Origin: Clostridia bacterium
GTDB lineage: Bacteria > Bacillota > Clostridia > Oscillospirales > CAG-272
Length of the DNA stretch: 49,938 bases
Direction of reading: 5' to 3'
Assembly (NCBI GenBank): GCA_017398585.1
Contig: JAFQFS010000103.1
Location: forward strand, 1 to 49,938
The translations under genes and the position numbers were made by a program. The notes beneath the pieces were generated by a model that worked only from the letters and a program-made list of their open reading frames with translations, did not search any database and was not told where the DNA came from. Below, piece by piece: positions 912 to 34,680 of this stretch. How positions within the stretch are numbered: position 1 is the first letter of the stretch; each line of letters begins with the position of its first letter.

Positions 912-1142
912 TTATAAAATTTTGTCATACGGTTTCGGATTATCCGTTAAACCAAGGAGGTAGTCGGTCGAGGTCTTGTAGAGAACCGCAAGGCGGATTA
1001 ATGAATGTACTGGAATTTCACATTGTCCGCTTTCATATCGGATGTATTGTGTTCGTCCTGCCTGAAGATACTGTGCAACCTGAAGTTGAGTCAGATCATG
1101 ATCTTCCCGTAAGTCGCGCAGTCTGCGGTAATGATATCCCAT
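912..1142 (-). CDS. Small XRE-family HTH regulator (module 1)
   Basis: A 76-residue protein that is essentially one Cro/C1-type helix-turn-helix followed by a short tail. Residues 5-33 hold RRLRDLREDHDLTQLQVAQYL, with TQ at the start of helix 2, then the recognition segment QAGRTQYIRYESG. The C-terminal YKTSTDYLLGLTDNPKP is almost identical to that of three paralogues at 32763-33482. It is divergent from a DUF6809-like gene and shares a conserved promoter/operator with it, so autoregulation and control of that neighbour are likely (inference). The start codon follows GGAGAAAA at a fairly long spacing. No other domain is present. Confidence 0.9.
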   Translation of the reverse strand: MGYHYRRLRDLREDHDLTQLQVAQYLQAGRTQYIRYESGQCEIPVHSLIRLAVLYKTSTDYLLGLTDNPKPYDKIL

Positions 1143-1170
1143 GTTTTGATTTTCTCCGTAAATTTATAGC

Positions 1171-1218
1171 ATTTTATATTGACATTATAGTATAATTCTC
1201 GTATAATATAATAAAAAT
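1171..1218. promoter_or_regulatory. Conserved divergent promoter/operator, module 1
   Basis: On the plus strand TTGACA (1179-1184), 17-bp spacer, TATAAT (1202-1207) is a perfect consensus promoter for the DUF6809-like gene. An inverted repeat TTATATT-N8-AGTATAA (one mismatch) covers the -35 box. About 39 of 46 positions match the region at 32694-32740 read on the minus strand, which lies in the equivalent place of module 2. Such conservation between non-coding regions suggests an operator for the adjacent XRE protein. Confidence 0.75.
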
Positions 1219-1254
1219 GTCTCTAAGTAGAGGCATTGTCTACAGGAGAAACCC

Positions 1255-1524
1255 ATGAAAATACTCGAAGAATTCTACTACGGCAACATCCGCGCATCCG
1301 ACCGGCCGTCCGCTTACCGTGAGGAGCGAGAGGAAGTTGATCGTCTTGTCCGGATGAACTACGAAAAACTCCTCGCCCTGCTGAACGACGAGCAGAAAGA
1401 CCGTCTTCACCGTCTCGAAGACTGTATCATGGAACAGGGCGCCATCGAGGAACGGTACGCCTTTCTGGCAGGATTCCGTCTCGGTGTCCGCATAACGGCG
1501 GAGTGTTTCGCGGACGAAACATGA
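1255..1524 (+). CDS. DUF6809-like small protein (module 1)
   Basis: An 89-residue acidic, probably all-helical cytoplasmic protein. It opens MKILEEFYYGNIRASDRP and ends FLAGFRLGVRITAECFADE, the pattern of the DUF6809 family of Firmicutes (family recognition by eye). A paralogue of the same length lies at 32387-32656, sharing the N-terminal xDRPxxYREExxxxDRL region and the C-terminal (G)FRxxxRxxxExFAD region. Function is unknown. It has its own perfect sigma-A promoter, overlapped by a putative operator, and the ribosome site AGGAGAAA. It lies divergent to an XRE gene, as its paralogue does. Confidence 0.85.
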   Translation: MKILEEFYYGNIRASDRPSAYREEREEVDRLVRMNYEKLLALLNDEQKDRLHRLEDCIMEQGAIEERYAFLAGFRLGVRITAECFADET

Positions 1525-1594: not shown

Positions 1595-3697
1595 ATGACC
1601 AAAGAAAAAGCCAGAGAACTTGCCCGCGCCCTCGTCGGTCAGATGACCGTTGAAGAAAAGGCGTCCCAGCTCCTCTATAATTCCCCCGCCATCGAACGCC
1701 TCGGCATCCACGACTACAACTGGTGGAACGAAGCATCCCACGGCGTCGCACGTTCCGGTATGGCGACCGTATTCCCGCACGCGATCGGTCTCGCGTCCAC
1801 GTTCAACCCCGACCTCATCGGTGAAGTCGGCGAAGCCGTGTCCACCGAAGCCCGCGCGAAGTACAACAACAGCGTCGAATACAACGACTTCGATATCTAT
1901 AAGGGCCTCACCTACTGGACCCCGAACATCAACATCTTCCGTGACCCGAGATGGGGACGCGGACAGGAAACCTTCGGCGAAGACCCGTTCCTCACCGCAT
2001 CCCTCGCCGTTCCCTACATCAAGGGACTCCAGGGCGACGGTGAATTCCTCAAGTCCGCCGCATGTGCGAAGCATTTCGCCGTTCACTCCGGACCCGAAGC
2101 CGGACGCCACAGCTTCAACTCCGTCACGAATGCCCATGACCTCTGGGAAACCTATCTTCCCGCGTTCGAATGGTGCGTCAAGGAAGGCGGTGTTGCCGGT
2201 GTTATGGGTGCGTACAACCGTACCAACGGTCAGCCCTGCTGCGGTCACAGCGAACTGATCGGCGATATCCTCCTCGGTCAGTGGAACTTCGACGGCTATT
2301 TCGTTTCCGACTGCGGCGCGATCTACGACATCTGCAAGTTCCATCACTACACCGACACCATGGAAGAAGCGGCGGCGCTCGCGCTCAAGGCGGGCTGCAA
2401 CCTCAACTGCGGCGACGCGTACACGCACCTCATGGAAGCGTACGAACAGGACCTCATCACCGAGGACGACCTCACCGAAGCGGCGGTCAAGGTCTATACG
2501 ATCCGCTATCTCCTCGGCGAATTCGAAGAAAACCGTCCGTATTCCGATATCCCGTTCGACAAACTCGACTGCGATGAACACCGCGACCTCAACCTCCGTG
2601 CGGCGGAAGAATGCATGGTCCTCCTGAAGAACGACGGATTCCTCCCGCTCGACGCGGAAAAGGCTCACAAGATCGCCGTCATCGGCCCGAACGCAATGTC
2701 CCAGATCGCACTCGAAGGCAACTACAACGGCATGGCGTCCGAATACATCACCGTTGCCGACGGTGTGCGCCGCGTTTTCGCGAACTCTTCCGTCCGTGCG
2801 GCAAAGGGCGCGAACATTTTCGTTGACAACCGCAACGACTGTTCCGGCTTCACCAACATGATCAGCGAAGGCATCGCGTACGCGAAGAACGCCGACATCA
2901 CCGTCCTCGTCCTCGGTCTCGACTGCCACATCGAAGGCGAAGAAATCCGTGTCAAGAACGACTACTTCGAAGGCGGCGACCGCAAGCGTCTCCAGCTTCC
3001 GAAGACCCAGATGGATCTCGCGGAAGCGGTCTGCGAAGTCTGCGACAACGTCATCGTGGTTGTCCTCGCGGGCAGCGCGGTCGACCTCGGTGAAAAGCTG
3101 ACGAACCACGCCCACGCTGTTATTCACGGCTGGTATCCGGGTGCGGTCGGCGGACTTGCTGCGGCACGTCTCATCGCGGGCAAGTATTCCCCGAGCGCAA
3201 AGCTCCCGCTGACGTTCTACCACTCCTGCGATGACCTTCCGGCGTACGAAAACTACGACATGACCGGACGCACCTACCGTTACTTTACCGGCGACGTCCT
3301 CTATCCGTTCGGCTACGGTCTGTCCTACACCACGTTCGCGTACGACAACGTAACCATCGCGGCGGAAACCGACGATGAGTACGAAATTTCCATGACCGTT
3401 GCCAACACGGGCGACCGCGACGGCATCGAAAAGGTGCAGATCTACGCGTCCTACACCGACTCCCGCACCCCGACCCCGCTGTACCAGCTCTGCGGTGTGA
3501 AGGCGGTTGACGTGAAGGCAGGAGAAGCGGCAGACGTGACCGTGAAGGTGAACAAGTACTGGCTGAAGGCTGTCCTCGAAGACGGCACGAGAACCGAACC
3601 CGACGGAAAGCTCGAACTCTACGTCGGCGGACATCAGCCGGACAAGAAGAGCGCACAGCTCTGCGGAACCGACTGCGTGAAGCTCGTTATCCGATAA
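1595..3697 (+). CDS. Glycoside hydrolase family 3 (beta-glucosidase/beta-xylosidase type)
   Basis: A 700-residue retaining beta-glycosidase that releases non-reducing terminal sugars from oligosaccharides. The N-terminal TIM barrel includes RDPRWGRGQETFGEDP (117-131), the KHF motif (159-161) and the nucleophile loop GYFVSDCGAI with the catalytic Asp at about 239. The alpha/beta sandwich follows (KIAVIGPNA), with YPFGYGLSYTTF leading into a C-terminal fibronectin-III-like domain. The motifs resemble beta-xylosidase/alpha-arabinosidase-type GH3 enzymes, but specificity is not certain. There is no signal peptide, so action is intracellular. The ribosome site AAGGAGAA fixes the start. Codon use is strongly biased (CTC, GAA, CGC/CGT), suggesting high expression. 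It is monocistronic, ending at a bidirectional terminator. Confidence 0.93.
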   Translation: MTKEKARELARALVGQMTVEEKASQLLYNSPAIERLGIHDYNWWNEASHGVARSGMATVFPHAIGLASTFNPDLIGEVGEAVSTEARAKYNNSVEYNDFDIYKGLTYWTPNINIFRDPRWGRGQETFGEDPFLTASLAVPYIKGLQGDGEFLKSAACAKHFAVHSGPEAGRHSFNSVTNAHDLWETYLPAFEWCVKEGGVAGVMGAYNRTNGQPCCGHSELIGDILLGQWNFDGYFVSDCGAIYDICKFHHYTDTMEEAAALALKAGCNLNCGDAYTHLMEAYEQDLITEDDLTEAAVKVYTIRYLLGEFEENRPYSDIPFDKLDCDEHRDLNLRAAEECMVLLKNDGFLPLDAEKAHKIAVIGPNAMSQIALEGNYNGMASEYITVADGVRRVFANSSVRAAKGANIFVDNRNDCSGFTNMISEGIAYAKNADITVLVLGLDCHIEGEEIRVKNDYFEGGDRKRLQLPKTQMDLAEAVCEVCDNVIVVVLAGSAVDLGEKLTNHAHAVIHGWYPGAVGGLAAARLIAGKYSPSAKLPLTFYHSCDDLPAYENYDMTGRTYRYFTGDVLYPFGYGLSYTTFAYDNVTIAAETDDEYEISMTVANTGDRDGIEKVQIYASYTDSRTPTPLYQLCGVKAVDVKAGEAADVTVKVNKYWLKAVLEDGTRTEPDGKLELYVGGHQPDKKSAQLCGTDCVKLVIR

Positions 3698-32162: not shown

Positions 32163-32202
32163 AGAAAAAGGGCAAGTCAGCTTCTCGGAAACTGATTTGC
32201 CC
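32163..32202 (-). terminator. Expression-platform terminator of the pflB leader
   Basis: Minus strand GGGCAAATCAG (32192-32202) pairs with CTGACTTGCCC (32170-32180), one mismatch, followed by TTTTT (32165-32169). Its 5' arm shares GGGCA with the conserved 3' end of the ZTP aptamer, so aptamer folding and terminator formation exclude each other. Confidence 0.8.
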
Positions 32203-32275
32203 AGACGGTCGGCATAATGGCTTCTGCATTCCCTTGCGGTGCTCCGCAAAATCCGTCAGTTATGTAGAAGCTGTA
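32198..32275 (-). ncRNA. ZTP riboswitch (pfl motif) upstream of pflB
   Basis: On the minus strand stem P1 pairs GCTTCT (32266-32271) with AGAAGC. P2 is TTGCGG-AGCA-CCGCAA and is preceded by the conserved ACTGACGGA. The 3' conserved block CCGTCTGGGCA (32198-32208) follows, whose CCGTC can pair with GACGG as the pseudoknot. This order and these blocks match the known ZTP/pfl riboswitch consensus, which senses the purine intermediate AICAR phosphates (ZMP/ZTP). Ligand binding would free pflB from the overlapping terminator, giving an ON switch (inference from architecture). Confidence 0.8.
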
Positions 32276-32386: not shown

Positions 32387-32656
32387 TCATGCGTCATCCG
32401 CGAAGGATTCCGTCATGAGGCGGACGGCGGATCGGAATCCGAGGAGGAAGGCACAGCGTTCGTCGAGTTCGCTCCGTTCGCGGGCACAGCGTTCGATGGT
32501 ACGGAAGAGTTTTTTCTGATGATCGGTGAGCCCGGCGAGAAGTTCACCGGTGCGGCGGTTTTTGAGCCGGTCGATGTCGCGGCATTCTTCGCGATACCAC
32601 GCGGGACGGTCAGTGGCGGAGAGGTCACAGGTGTACAGTTCTTCGATGAGTTTCAT
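32387..32656 (-). CDS. DUF6809-like small protein (module 2)
   Basis: An 89-residue paralogue of the protein at 1255-1524: same length, same xDRPxWYREExxDIDRL N-terminal third, same ERCAFLLGFRSAVRLMTESFADD C-terminus with an Asp tail. Probably all-helical and cytoplasmic; function unknown. The start at 32656 has GAGGTAT; an in-frame ATG at 32713 lies in the promoter region. Its promoter on the minus strand (32705-32733) is a perfect TTGACA-17-TATAAT and is nearly identical in sequence to that of module 1. It is divergent to three tandem XRE genes. Confidence 0.85.
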   Translation of the reverse strand: MKLIEELYTCDLSATDRPAWYREECRDIDRLKNRRTGELLAGLTDHQKKLFRTIERCARERSELDERCAFLLGFRSAVRLMTESFADDA

Positions 32657-32693
32657 GGGATACCTCGGTTTTTTCGTAACTCCGTTTGGAGTT

Positions 32694-32740
32694 ATTTTTG
32701 GTATATTATACACAACTTATATTATAATGTCAATATAAAA
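32694..32740. promoter_or_regulatory. Conserved divergent promoter/operator, module 2
   Basis: Minus strand TTGACA (32728-32733), 17-bp spacer, TATAAT (32705-32710) drives the DUF6809-like gene. The perfect inverted repeat TTATATT-GACATTAT-AATATAA overlaps the -35 box. It aligns with 1171-1218 with about 39 of 46 identities. On the plus strand a TATAAT (32723-32728) could serve the XRE genes. Confidence 0.75.
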
Positions 32741-32762
32741 AATGAAAATTTGAGGCTAAACA

Positions 32763-32996
32763 ATGAAGTATCTATATCGCCGCATACGTGATTTGCGGGA
32801 AGATCATGACATGACACAGGCACAGATTGCAAAATATCTTGGCGCGGGATTGACGCAATATGCACGATATGAACGCGGAGAACGGGCGATTCCGGTAAAT
32901 ATGCTGGCTATGCTTGCAGTTTTATATAAAACCTCGACGGACTATCTCCTCGGACTGACGAACAACCCGAAACCGCCGGAGGATTTATTGGAGTAA
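32763..32996 (+). CDS. Small XRE-family HTH regulator (module 2, first of three)
   Basis: A 77-residue single-domain HTH protein. LYRRIRDLREDHDMTQAQIA forms helices 1-2; the recognition segment GAGLTQYARYERG is closest to that of the module 1 protein (QAGRTQYIRYESG). The tail YKTSTDYLLGLTNNPKPPED is nearly invariant among the four paralogues. GAGG precedes the start. It is the promoter-proximal member and the one facing the conserved operator, so it is the best candidate to bind it (inference). Confidence 0.9.
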   Translation: MKYLYRRIRDLREDHDMTQAQIAKYLGAGLTQYARYERGERAIPVNMLAMLAVLYKTSTDYLLGLTNNPKPPEDLLE

Positions 32997-33000
32997 AAAT

Positions 33001-33234
33001 ATGGACTACTATTACCGCAGACTGCGTGACCTGCGGGAAGACCACGATCTGACACAGGTACAGGTCGCGGAATACCTTGAGATGAAACAACCGCAGTATC
33101 TTCGTTATGAAAAAGGGCAGCAGGACATTCCGACTCCTGTATTGATCCGACTTGCACGGCTATACAAAACCTCGACAGACTATCTCCTCGGGCTGACGAA
33201 CAACCCGAAGCCGCCGGAGAACTTGCCGGAATGA
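33001..33234 (+). CDS. Small XRE-family HTH regulator (module 2, second of three)
   Basis: A 77-residue paralogue, only 4 bp after the previous stop. The framework (YYRRLRDLREDHDLTQVQVA, and tail YKTSTDYLLGLTNNPKPPEN) is conserved, but the recognition segment is EMKQPQYLRYEKG, unlike its neighbours. A GGAG lies inside the end of the previous gene, so translation is probably coupled. No promoter of its own is seen. Confidence 0.9.
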   Translation: MDYYYRRLRDLREDHDLTQVQVAEYLEMKQPQYLRYEKGQQDIPTPVLIRLARLYKTSTDYLLGLTNNPKPPENLPE

Positions 33235-33251
33235 TTTAGAGGAGAGCAGGG

Positions 33252-33482
33252 ATGGAATACTACTACCGCAGACTGCGGGATTTACGGGAAGACCACGACT
33301 TATATCAGAAAGATGTAGCGGAATTCCTCGGAATTCATCCGGTGCAGTATCTCAAATATGAAAAGGGTCAGCGGGAAATTCCGGTGCACCTGCTGGTGCG
33401 TCTTGCAGAATTCTATAAAACTTCGACAGACTACCTTCTCGGACGAACGAATGATCCGAAACCGCCGGAGGACCTGCCGTAG
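33252..33482 (+). CDS. Small XRE-family HTH regulator (module 2, third of three)
   Basis: A 76-residue paralogue, 17 bp after the second. It keeps YYRRLRDLREDHDL, but the TQ that starts helix 2 is YQ, and the recognition segment is GIHPVQYLKYEKG. The tail is YKTSTDYLLGRTNDPKPPED. The ribosome site GAGGAGAG is stronger than those of the two upstream genes. Cotranscription with them is likely. A structured repeat follows. Confidence 0.9.
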   Translation: MEYYYRRLRDLREDHDLYQKDVAEFLGIHPVQYLKYEKGQREIPVHLLVRLAEFYKTSTDYLLGRTNDPKPPEDLP

Positions 33483-33654: not shown

Positions 33655-34680
33655 ATGAACGATTTTGAAACCACAAAGTCCGGTTATGTCGTCGTCACCG
33701 ACACGATCCCAAACGACGGTTCCGCGGACGTGTCCGACGCGATCCAGAAGCTGATCGACGACAACCCGAACCGCACGATCTACTTCCCGGATGGCACGTA
33801 CATCCTCGGAAAACCGATCCTCACTCCCGCGCATCCGAAAAAGAGCGTCGCGCTGAAGCTCTCGACTTATGCGGTGCTCAAGGCGGCGGACGGCTGGGAC
33901 AGCGACGAAGCCATGGTGCGTCTCGGCGCGTCGCATCCCGCAAACGACATCTACACCATCGGCAGCAACTACTCCTTCACCGGCGGCATCGTGGACGGCA
34001 GCGGCGTTGCAAAGGGCATTTCCATTGACGGCGGACGCGAAACCATGATCCGCGACGTGTCGATCAAGCATGTGAAGATCGGCATCCACATCAAATACGG
34101 TGCGAACAGCGGCTCGTCCGACGCGGATATCTTTGGCGTGAACATCATCGGCAACGGTGCGATCGATTCGGTCGGCGTTCTGCTCGAAGGCTACGACAAC
34201 ACGCTGACGAATATGCGGATCGCGCGCGTATTCACTGGCATTGAGCTTCGTTCCGCGGGCAACAGTATGCGAAACCTGCACCCTCTGTACACCTGCGACT
34301 ACACGGATTACGGCAATTCCTGCGGCTTCCTCGATTACGCGGGGAACAACTGGTACAATTTCTGCTACAGCGACCATTTCGGCATCGGCTTCCGTACGGC
34401 AAGCACCGAGCGCAACCGCAACGTCCGCAACATCTATGACAGCTGCTTCACGATGTGGTACGCGGCACGCGGGGACGTTCACACGGCGTTCCGCGCGGAC
34501 GGAAAATTCAACTCGGTTCTGACGAACTTCAACATCGGCTTCCATCATCAGCAGGAAAAGAACGTCGTTCTGTCCGTGGGCGAACCCGGCGGACGCGGCG
34601 TCTTCAACCGTCTGTCGGTGAATCCGAAGAAATGCACGGACGACACGTACAAGGAATATCTCGAAGGCGGACTGTTCTGA
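33655..34680 (+). CDS. Pectate-lyase-superfamily (parallel beta-helix) protein
   Basis: A 341-residue right-handed beta-helix protein. The start TDTIPNDGSADVSDAIQKLI, then RTIYFPDGTYILGKPI (39-54), is the classic opening of the pectate lyase 3 / GH55-like superfamily. Coils follow with repeated GI/GV-x-L/I patterns (GGIVDGSGVAKGISIDGG, VKIGIHIKYG, GVLLEGYDNTL). The catalytic class, lyase or hydrolase, cannot be assigned. No signal peptide. AGGAGGTT precedes the start. No clear promoter is seen in the 170 bp upstream. Confidence 0.78.
   Translation: MNDFETTKSGYVVVTDTIPNDGSADVSDAIQKLIDDNPNRTIYFPDGTYILGKPILTPAHPKKSVALKLSTYAVLKAADGWDSDEAMVRLGASHPANDIYTIGSNYSFTGGIVDGSGVAKGISIDGGRETMIRDVSIKHVKIGIHIKYGANSGSSDADIFGVNIIGNGAIDSVGVLLEGYDNTLTNMRIARVFTGIELRSAGNSMRNLHPLYTCDYTDYGNSCGFLDYAGNNWYNFCYSDHFGIGFRTASTERNRNVRNIYDSCFTMWYAARGDVHTAFRADGKFNSVLTNFNIGFHHQQEKNVVLSVGEPGGRGVFNRLSVNPKKCTDDTYKEYLEGGLF

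What the first reader, a model, noticed from the sequence alone, without database searches (positions are those of the whole stretch)
912..1524. Repeated divergent XRE/DUF6809 module with a conserved promoter-operator
Seen: a small XRE gene divergent from a DUF6809-like gene occurs twice, 31 kb apart (912-1524 and 32387-33482). The intergenic regions 1171-1218 and 32694-32740 (opposite strands) share about 39 of 46 positions, including TTGACA-17-TATAAT and the inverted repeat TTATATT-N8-AATATAA over the -35 box. The XRE proteins facing this site share A-G-x-T-Q-Y in the recognition segment. Inference: each XRE protein represses the DUF6809-like gene and itself, possibly with cross-talk, forming a small regulatory or toxin-antitoxin-like module of unknown output.
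Basis: partly seen in the sequence, partly recalled or inferred. Interest (0 to 1): 0.7.

Follow-up and report, generated by a model that had tools for sequence, protein, structure and literature searches.

The report
Repressor-operator cassettes guarding DUF6809 genes
Two places in this gut-bacterial DNA carry a small repressor gene facing a strong promoter for a protein of unknown function, and comparison with relatives suggests that the repressor and its landing site change specificity together.

Summary
In detail: two divergent XRE/DUF6809 loci share a promoter block (40 of 47 positions). I prefer another operator. In nine loci of this type the -35 to -10 block is 85% identical whatever the XRE recognition helix, while the 34 nt after the -10 are 39% identical yet carry a 7-4-7 palindrome: 1218-1235 and 32677-32694 here. 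Across 99 loci, XREs with like recognition residues share palindromic half-sites far more often than others.

Of 39 genus DUF6809 loci, 17 have a divergent XRE and 3 a divergent HTH_26. A near-consensus promoter occurs in 14 of 19 XRE-facing loci and in 0 of 18 genus loci where I found no local XRE or HTH_26. At two syntenic sites the cassette is more diverged than the neighbouring downstream genes, and P0005 matches a repressor that faces DUF6809 in a relative.

Most likely: a local single-gene repressor switch whose specificity changes fast. DUF6809's role is unknown; no paper found. Toxin-antitoxin is not supported. No binding was measured.

The parts
912..1142 (-). XRE repressor of locus 1 (P0001, 76 aa, recognition segment AGRTQY)
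1184..1212 (-). predicted weak promoter of XRE 1 (-35 ATTATA, -10 TATAAT); its -10 abuts the -35 of the DUF6809 promoter
   Evidence: consensus score 9 of 12; inferred
1179..1207 (+). DUF6809 promoter 1, TTGACA-N17-TATAAT
   Evidence: score 12 of 12
1218..1235 (.). predicted operator 1, TGTCTCT-AAGT-AGAGGCA (6 of 7 arm matches)
   Evidence: binding not tested
1255..1524 (+). DUF6809 gene 1 (P0002, 89 aa)
32387..32656 (-). DUF6809 gene 2 (P0003, 89 aa)
32677..32694 (.). predicted operator 2, TAACTCC-AAAC-GGAGTTA; the only such site in the held genome at up to 2 mismatches
   Evidence: binding not tested
32705..32733 (-). DUF6809 promoter 2, TTGACA-N17-TATAAT
32700..32728 (+). predicted weak promoter of the XRE genes at locus 2 (-10 TATAAT at 32723-32728)
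   Evidence: consensus score 8 of 12; another candidate nearby scores 9; inferred
32763..32996 (+). facing XRE of locus 2 (P0004, AGLTQY)
33001..33234 (+). second XRE (P0005, MKQPQY); 94% identical to the facing XRE at the syntenic site L117
33252..33482 (+). third XRE (P0006, IHPVQY)

Best explanation
Each locus is a self-contained single-gene switch. A dimer of the ~76-residue XRE protein binds a 7-4-7 palindrome placed about +3 to +20 of a near-consensus promoter and blocks transcription of the DUF6809 gene. The weaker XRE promoter lies head-on against it, so blocking the strong promoter should favour the XRE promoter and help hold the off state. Loss of the repressor, or an unknown signal, would give a burst of DUF6809. 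Specificity sits in recognition-helix residues around 28-34, which change together with the operator, so cassettes are largely insulated from each other. At fixed chromosomal sites cassettes are replaced or rewired over time; at locus 2 the older repressor P0005 seems to remain behind a newer one, P0004. Shown by comparison only: the architecture, the helix-operator association over the wider XRE family, the promoter-repressor association and the excess divergence of the cassette. Inferred: binding, direction of regulation, feedback, and that unrepressed DUF6809 expression is costly. DUF6809's biochemical role is not established; my leading guess is a small conditional effector kept silent by default.
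For: All 39 genus DUF6809 matches were fetched: 17 have a divergent XRE (one, L123, of another type), 3 a divergent HTH_26. In the own genome the 5 best matches to P0005 all lie beside DUF6809. Nine loci: promoter block 85% identical, next 34 nt 39%; 7-4-7 score there 56 of 63, shuffle mean 36.5, maximum 44 in 2000. Over 99 loci after removing duplicates (DUF-DUF pairs left out), pairs sharing at least 5 of 6 recognition residues share a palindromic half-site in 162 of 476, others in 98 of 4204, 0 of 1000 permutations; without the MSQTG group 22 of 125 against 21 of 2260, permutation mean 2.4, maximum 11. Promoter score at least 11 of 12: 14 of 19 with divergent XRE, 3 of 3 with HTH_26, 0 of 18 genus loci without either, 0 of 25 tnpV loci. 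Syntenic sites: DUF dS 0.77-1.22 and dN 0.17-0.37, against dS 0.33-0.52 and dN 0.02-0.03 for the downstream genes; P0005 against the L117 XRE dS 0.63. Similar pairings in XREs facing unrelated genes.
Against: No binding or expression data. Within the DUF loci alone the helix-operator link is weak: a hand-placed Mantel test gave r 0.67, but with half-sites taken by rule it is 0.20 over 15 loci (211 of 5000 permutations reach it), 0.35 over the nine (77 of 5000) and 0.31 over eleven (96 of 5000); the rule missed the CACCT sites in L118, L144 and L147. Two of nine palindromes are poor: L115 4 of 7, L117 5 of 7. The pairing is not obligatory: outside the genus 4 of 64 DUF6809 loci have a divergent XRE; 4 of 80 related XREs have DUF6809 within 2 kb, two of them query rows; in the genus 8 of 30 XRE matches other than the query rows adjoin DUF6809. 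For XRE pairs under 50% identical outside the helix, 0 of 6 like-helix pairs share a half-site. Permutations do not model phylogeny. No P0005 operator was found in the held genome (73.6% complete): 10 places at 2 mismatches, control 11.
Confidence: 0.65

Rival explanations
1. One reading: the inverted repeat over the -35 is the operator, and both XREs bind it, with cross-talk.
For: The block is 40 of 47 identical between the loci; the facing XREs share AGxTQY; over nine loci the 7-8-7 repeat is above chance (best-anywhere sum 50, shuffle mean 43.3, 5 of 2000 reach it; at its own place 48 of 63 against 20.5).
Against: The nine loci share one conserved promoter, so they are not independent. The left arm takes seven forms while the right arm stays nearly the same, with no matching change. 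The block is equally conserved next to XREs with quite different helices.
Confidence: 0.18
2. A toxin-antitoxin-like module with DUF6809 as toxin and the XRE as antitoxin or sole silencer.
For: A strong promoter is seen only where a local repressor gene was found; small paired genes; several copies per genome.
Against: Divergent rather than operonic; no toxin family for P0002 or P0003 in Pfam, NCBIfam or PADLOC; 18 genus loci have DUF6809 with no XRE or HTH_26 found, including syntenic sites L114 and L125; DUF6809 also lies behind tnpV.
Confidence: 0.15
3. DUF6809 is a partner protein (anti-repressor or co-regulator) of DNA-binding proteins, so that the pair forms a feedback loop.
For: DUF6809 lies beside several types: HTH_3 XRE, HTH_26, and TnpV, for which PMC3158075 reports a proposed Xis-like role.
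Against: 76 of 80 related XREs have no DUF6809 within 2 kb; 50 of 102 DUF6809 loci show none of these neighbours within 500 bp by the clusters (four of the 50 do have a divergent XRE).
Confidence: 0.25
4. The downstream palindromes are RNA hairpins in the 5' leader rather than operators.
For: They lie in the transcribed leader and could form stem-loops; not folded here.
Against: In L112, L146, L147, L166 and L170 palindromes also lie over or upstream of the promoter, and half-sites go with XRE recognition residues across unrelated genes.
Confidence: 0.07

Closest known systems
RstR of phage CTXphi (NCBIfam NF041951)
   Same: Small XRE repressor; divergent alleles repress only their own type, the basis of heteroimmunity (passages of PMC7326730).
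   Different: The window XREs score 45-53 bits against a cut-off of 80; the output is DUF6809, not rstA. Phage genes around the window loci were not systematically looked for.
Controller (C) proteins of restriction-modification systems
   Same: Small HTH dimers on palindromes, classed by operator motif, with recognition-helix residues proposed to contact particular bases (passages of PMC3115060).
   Different: PADLOC Control_protein hits are weak (E 0.0004); restriction genes around the window loci were not systematically looked for.
ICEBs1 Xre regulator (PDB 7t8i; the name ImmR and its divergent excision gene are recalled)
   Same: Closest solved structure to the XRE profile, E 3e-13.
   Different: Sequence likeness only; no integrative element was looked for around the window loci.
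PF20648 DUF6809
   Same: P0002 and P0003 are members over the cut-off.
   Different: No function known; the papers library has no mention. In 25 analysed loci the gene follows tnpV instead.

Membership tests
DUF6809 (PF20648) | Pfam gathering score 27 bits | tested here: met
   P0002 70 bits, P0003 44.3 bits
XRE / HTH_3 (PF01381) | Pfam gathering score 23 bits | tested here: met
   33.6 to 48.2 bits for four proteins
RstR family (NF041951) | curated cut-off 80 bits | tested here: not met
   45.1 to 53.5 bits
Type II toxin-antitoxin module | recognisable toxin family | tested here: not met
   no toxin family for P0002 or P0003
Type II toxin-antitoxin module | co-operonic antitoxin and toxin | tested here: not met
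   the genes are divergent
Type II toxin-antitoxin module | growth inhibition neutralised by the partner | not testable with these tools
   needs an expression test
R-M controller protein | neighbouring restriction or methylase genes | not tested
   the window's flanking genes were not scanned against family libraries
Insulated local repressor | operator follows recognition helix | tested here: inconclusive
   strong over the wider XRE family (0 of 1000 permutations); weak within the DUF loci alone (r 0.20-0.35 by rule)
Insulated local repressor | protein binds the palindrome | not testable with these tools
   needs EMSA or footprint

The most novel reading that the evidence does not exclude
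XRE-operator-DUF6809 cassettes behave like incompatibility or immunity groups at fixed chromosomal sites: a resident repressor silences incoming cassettes of the same specificity, which selects for new helix-operator pairs, while displaced repressors such as P0005 and P0006 are kept behind as immunity against older types.
Probability: 0.18. Interest if true: 0.68.

Novelty: new variant of a known kind. Interest (0 to 1): 0.46.

Why it matters
It gives an uncharacterised protein family a regulatory setting and a testable prediction, and it offers a natural series of small repressors whose DNA target may be read from a few residues. Such a series is useful for studying how repressor-operator pairs change together and for building orthogonal switches. 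The syntenic alleles may let one watch repressor replacement at a fixed site.

Tried and rejected
A GTDB search with the DUF alignment could not run because no stretch was conserved enough. DUF6809 as a phage gene: 2 of 50,697 phage records and 1 of 72,556 plasmid records match at E 0.01; in viral contigs 4 stretches matched a pattern and none was confirmed. A wider regulon for operator 2: one site in the held genome at up to 2 mismatches, control 10. Operator 1 has one further 1-mismatch site and others at 2 mismatches, in all 18 per strand against 54 in the control. No operator for P0005. The promoter pattern with up to 3 mismatches over 98 genomes mostly hits other promoters; the 8 genus matches with 0 or 1 mismatch are all DUF6809 modules, but the pattern was made from such loci; one 1-mismatch match outside the genus (G049:C1) is not at a PF20648 match. 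I dropped as circular a claim that the 11 best XRE matches adjoin DUF6809: they are the 11 rows of the query alignment. The hand-placed Mantel test weakened when half-sites were taken by rule. The five columns (P 0.0006) were picked after seeing their entropy; the six set beforehand give 1.81 against 0.73, P 0.0041, and several other columns vary as much. The DNA identity profile of L125 failed to align on its left flank.

Full report
What is there. Locus 1 has XRE P0001 (912-1142, -) divergent from DUF6809 P0002 (1255-1524, +). Locus 2 has DUF6809 P0003 (32387-32656, -) divergent from P0004 (32763-32996, +), followed by P0005 and P0006 on the same strand. Family assignments are firm. The shared block is 40 of 47 identical against a shuffle maximum of 31.

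How general is it. PF20648 is found in 50 of 98 relatives at E 0.001, 48 over the cut-off. Of the 124 matches in that call (my addition of its match column) I analysed 103 distinct loci, including all 39 of the genus listed. Twenty-one of the 103 have an XRE divergent within 600 bp: 17 of 39 in the genus and 4 of 64 outside. Two of the 21 (L123, L149) carry XREs of another type and were dropped from the later tests. Three more genus loci have a divergent HTH_26 gene. In the own genome the 5 best matches to P0005 (P0005 itself among them) all lie beside DUF6809, and the next ones do not. In the genus, of 41 XRE matches at E 1e-10, 11 are the query rows themselves; of the other 30, 8 adjoin DUF6809. 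Of 80 related XREs drawn from GTDB only 4 have DUF6809 within 2 kb, and two of those four are query rows. So the XRE type is broad, and DUF6809 is one of several outputs.

Where the operator is. In nine loci with the same layout the -35 to -10 block averages 85% identity and its 17-nt spacer 75%, while the next 34 nt average 39%. Yet those 34 nt carry a 7-4-7 palindrome at a nearly fixed place: 56 of 63 arm matches, against a shuffle mean of 36.5 and a maximum of 44 in 2000. Two of the nine are weak: L115 (4 of 7) and L117 (5 of 7). In the window the sites are 1218-1235 (TGTCTCT-AAGT-AGAGGCA) and 32677-32694 (TAACTCC-AAAC-GGAGTTA); they share a CTC core. Site 2 is unique in the held genome at up to 2 mismatches.

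Tested, it has 48 of 63 arm matches at its own place (shuffle mean 20.5, a place chosen beforehand because it matched), and the best 7-8-7 anywhere in the region sums to 50 (shuffle mean 43.3, 5 of 2000 reach it). It is perfect in one of nine loci. Since the nine share one conserved promoter, they are not independent; the left arm takes seven forms without matching change in the right arm, unlike the downstream palindromes, where both arms change together. I therefore prefer the downstream site, with less certainty than at first.

The helix and the site. XREs with MSQTG in the recognition helix face TAACC half-sites in 18 of 28 loci. In one search, 6 of the 9 printed MKQPQY loci have a TATAAC(C)...GGTTATA-type palindrome. 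MPQSQY (L215) has TGATATCC-N4-GGATATCA and L115 (IPQSQY) the half-site GATATCC. TTRQQV or TTKQQV XREs have CACCTT-type sites. Over 103 XRE loci, with DUF-DUF pairs left out, pairs sharing at least 5 of 6 recognition residues share a half-site in 183 of 512, the rest in 106 of 4570. After removal of near-duplicates and of two DUF-bearing loci from the other set (99 kept): 162 of 476 against 98 of 4204, and without MSQTG 22 of 125 against 21 of 2260, permutation mean 2.4, maximum 11; 0 of 1000 in both. By identity outside the helix: 111 of 314 against 12 of 573 (60-75%), 19 of 55 against 51 of 1779 (50-60%), 0 of 6 against 14 of 1166 (under 50%). Within the DUF loci alone the link is weak: hand-placed r 0.67, by rule 0.20 over 15 (211 of 5000), 0.35 over nine (77 of 5000) and 0.31 over eleven (96 of 5000). 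L119, L133, L138 and L166 were left out of these because their sites have another format. Phylogeny was not modelled. The six pre-set recognition columns are more variable than the rest of the domain (1.81 against 0.73, P 0.0041), but seven columns outside that set also have entropy of 2 or more.

Promoter and repressor go together. In the 110 nt before the DUF start, scores of at least 11 of 12 to TTGACA/TATAAT occur in 14 of 19 loci with a divergent XRE, 3 of 3 with divergent HTH_26, 0 of 18 genus loci where neither was found (L122 of these has tnpV; the fragment L148 was dropped) and 0 of 25 tnpV loci. A strong promoter for DUF6809 may be tolerated only under a repressor; or an inducible strong promoter may simply have no use without one.

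Turnover at fixed sites. The gene after locus 1 (1595-3697) is 96% identical in L115 and 97% over 239 residues in L125. The gene after DUF6809 at locus 2 is 94-95% identical in L117 and L114. On the other side the picture is mixed: the 295-888 protein is 76% identical in L125 and not found in the L115 stretch; the 33655-34680 protein is 98% identical in L114 and not found in the L117 stretch. Inside, DUF6809 proteins are 50-76% identical, with dS 0.77-1.22 against 0.33-0.52 for the downstream genes and dN 0.17-0.37 against 0.02-0.03. L125 and L114 have no XRE; L114 carries a repeat there. P0005 is 94% identical to the facing XRE of L117 with dS 0.63, near the downstream-gene value, while P0004 is 68% identical to it (dS 0.82), and the palindromes differ. 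This reads as replacement of the working repressor with the older one retained; other recombination histories would fit too.

DUF6809 elsewhere. In 25 analysed loci a TnpV-like gene ends within 30 nt of the DUF6809 start on the same strand; the one scanned is PF14198. Five of these loci also have HTH_26 130-185 nt downstream. Of 32 genes within 3 kb downstream, from 22 of the 25 loci, 31 were scanned; single or paired matches were to restriction, methylase, Schlafen, integrase and transposase families, with no control set. PMC3158075 (passages only) says TnpV of Tn4451 was proposed to act in excision by likeness to lambda Xis.

Other outputs. Of 61 first genes facing related XREs, 39 have a promoter score of at least 11, and 20 of these have a hydrophobic N-terminal stretch. 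Pfam matches among the 39 are scattered. Gene starts come from a simple ORF rule and some are doubtful; L204 and L287 look like one locus held twice.

Verdict. The unit is a new variant of a known kind, a local XRE repressor with diversified specificity, comparable to RstR alleles and C-protein classes. The role of DUF6809 is open. No paper on DUF6809 was found in this library; two searches on XRE helix-operator co-change listed one paper each, neither on this family by its title (listings only).

Noticed in passing
window 32192-32273 (-): ZMP/ZTP riboswitch (RF01750, 63.6 bits) between the DUF6809 gene and the next gene on that strand, so that gene probably has its own control.
   Followed up: no
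L125 and L129, upstream of DUF6809: DUF6809 genes with no XRE found share a palindrome-like site, TAGTACC-AAAT-GGTACTG, nearly perfect in L125 and partial in L129, with a weak promoter.
   Followed up: no
L113, L114, L116, upstream of DUF6809: A shared repeat of MITE-like look (GATTCCTCGGACAAGAAC) sits where the XRE and promoter would be; twice in L114, not in the window at up to 3 mismatches.
   Followed up: partly
L096, L102, L106, L109: tnpV-DUF6809 pairs beside genes that look like restriction, Schlafen or DNA methylase genes by my reading; only the Schlafen hit of L106 is tied to its locus in the output.
   Followed up: partly
L203-L281: A broad family of small Clostridia XREs faces varied genes, about half with a hydrophobic N-terminus, many through near-consensus promoters and palindromes.
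   Followed up: partly
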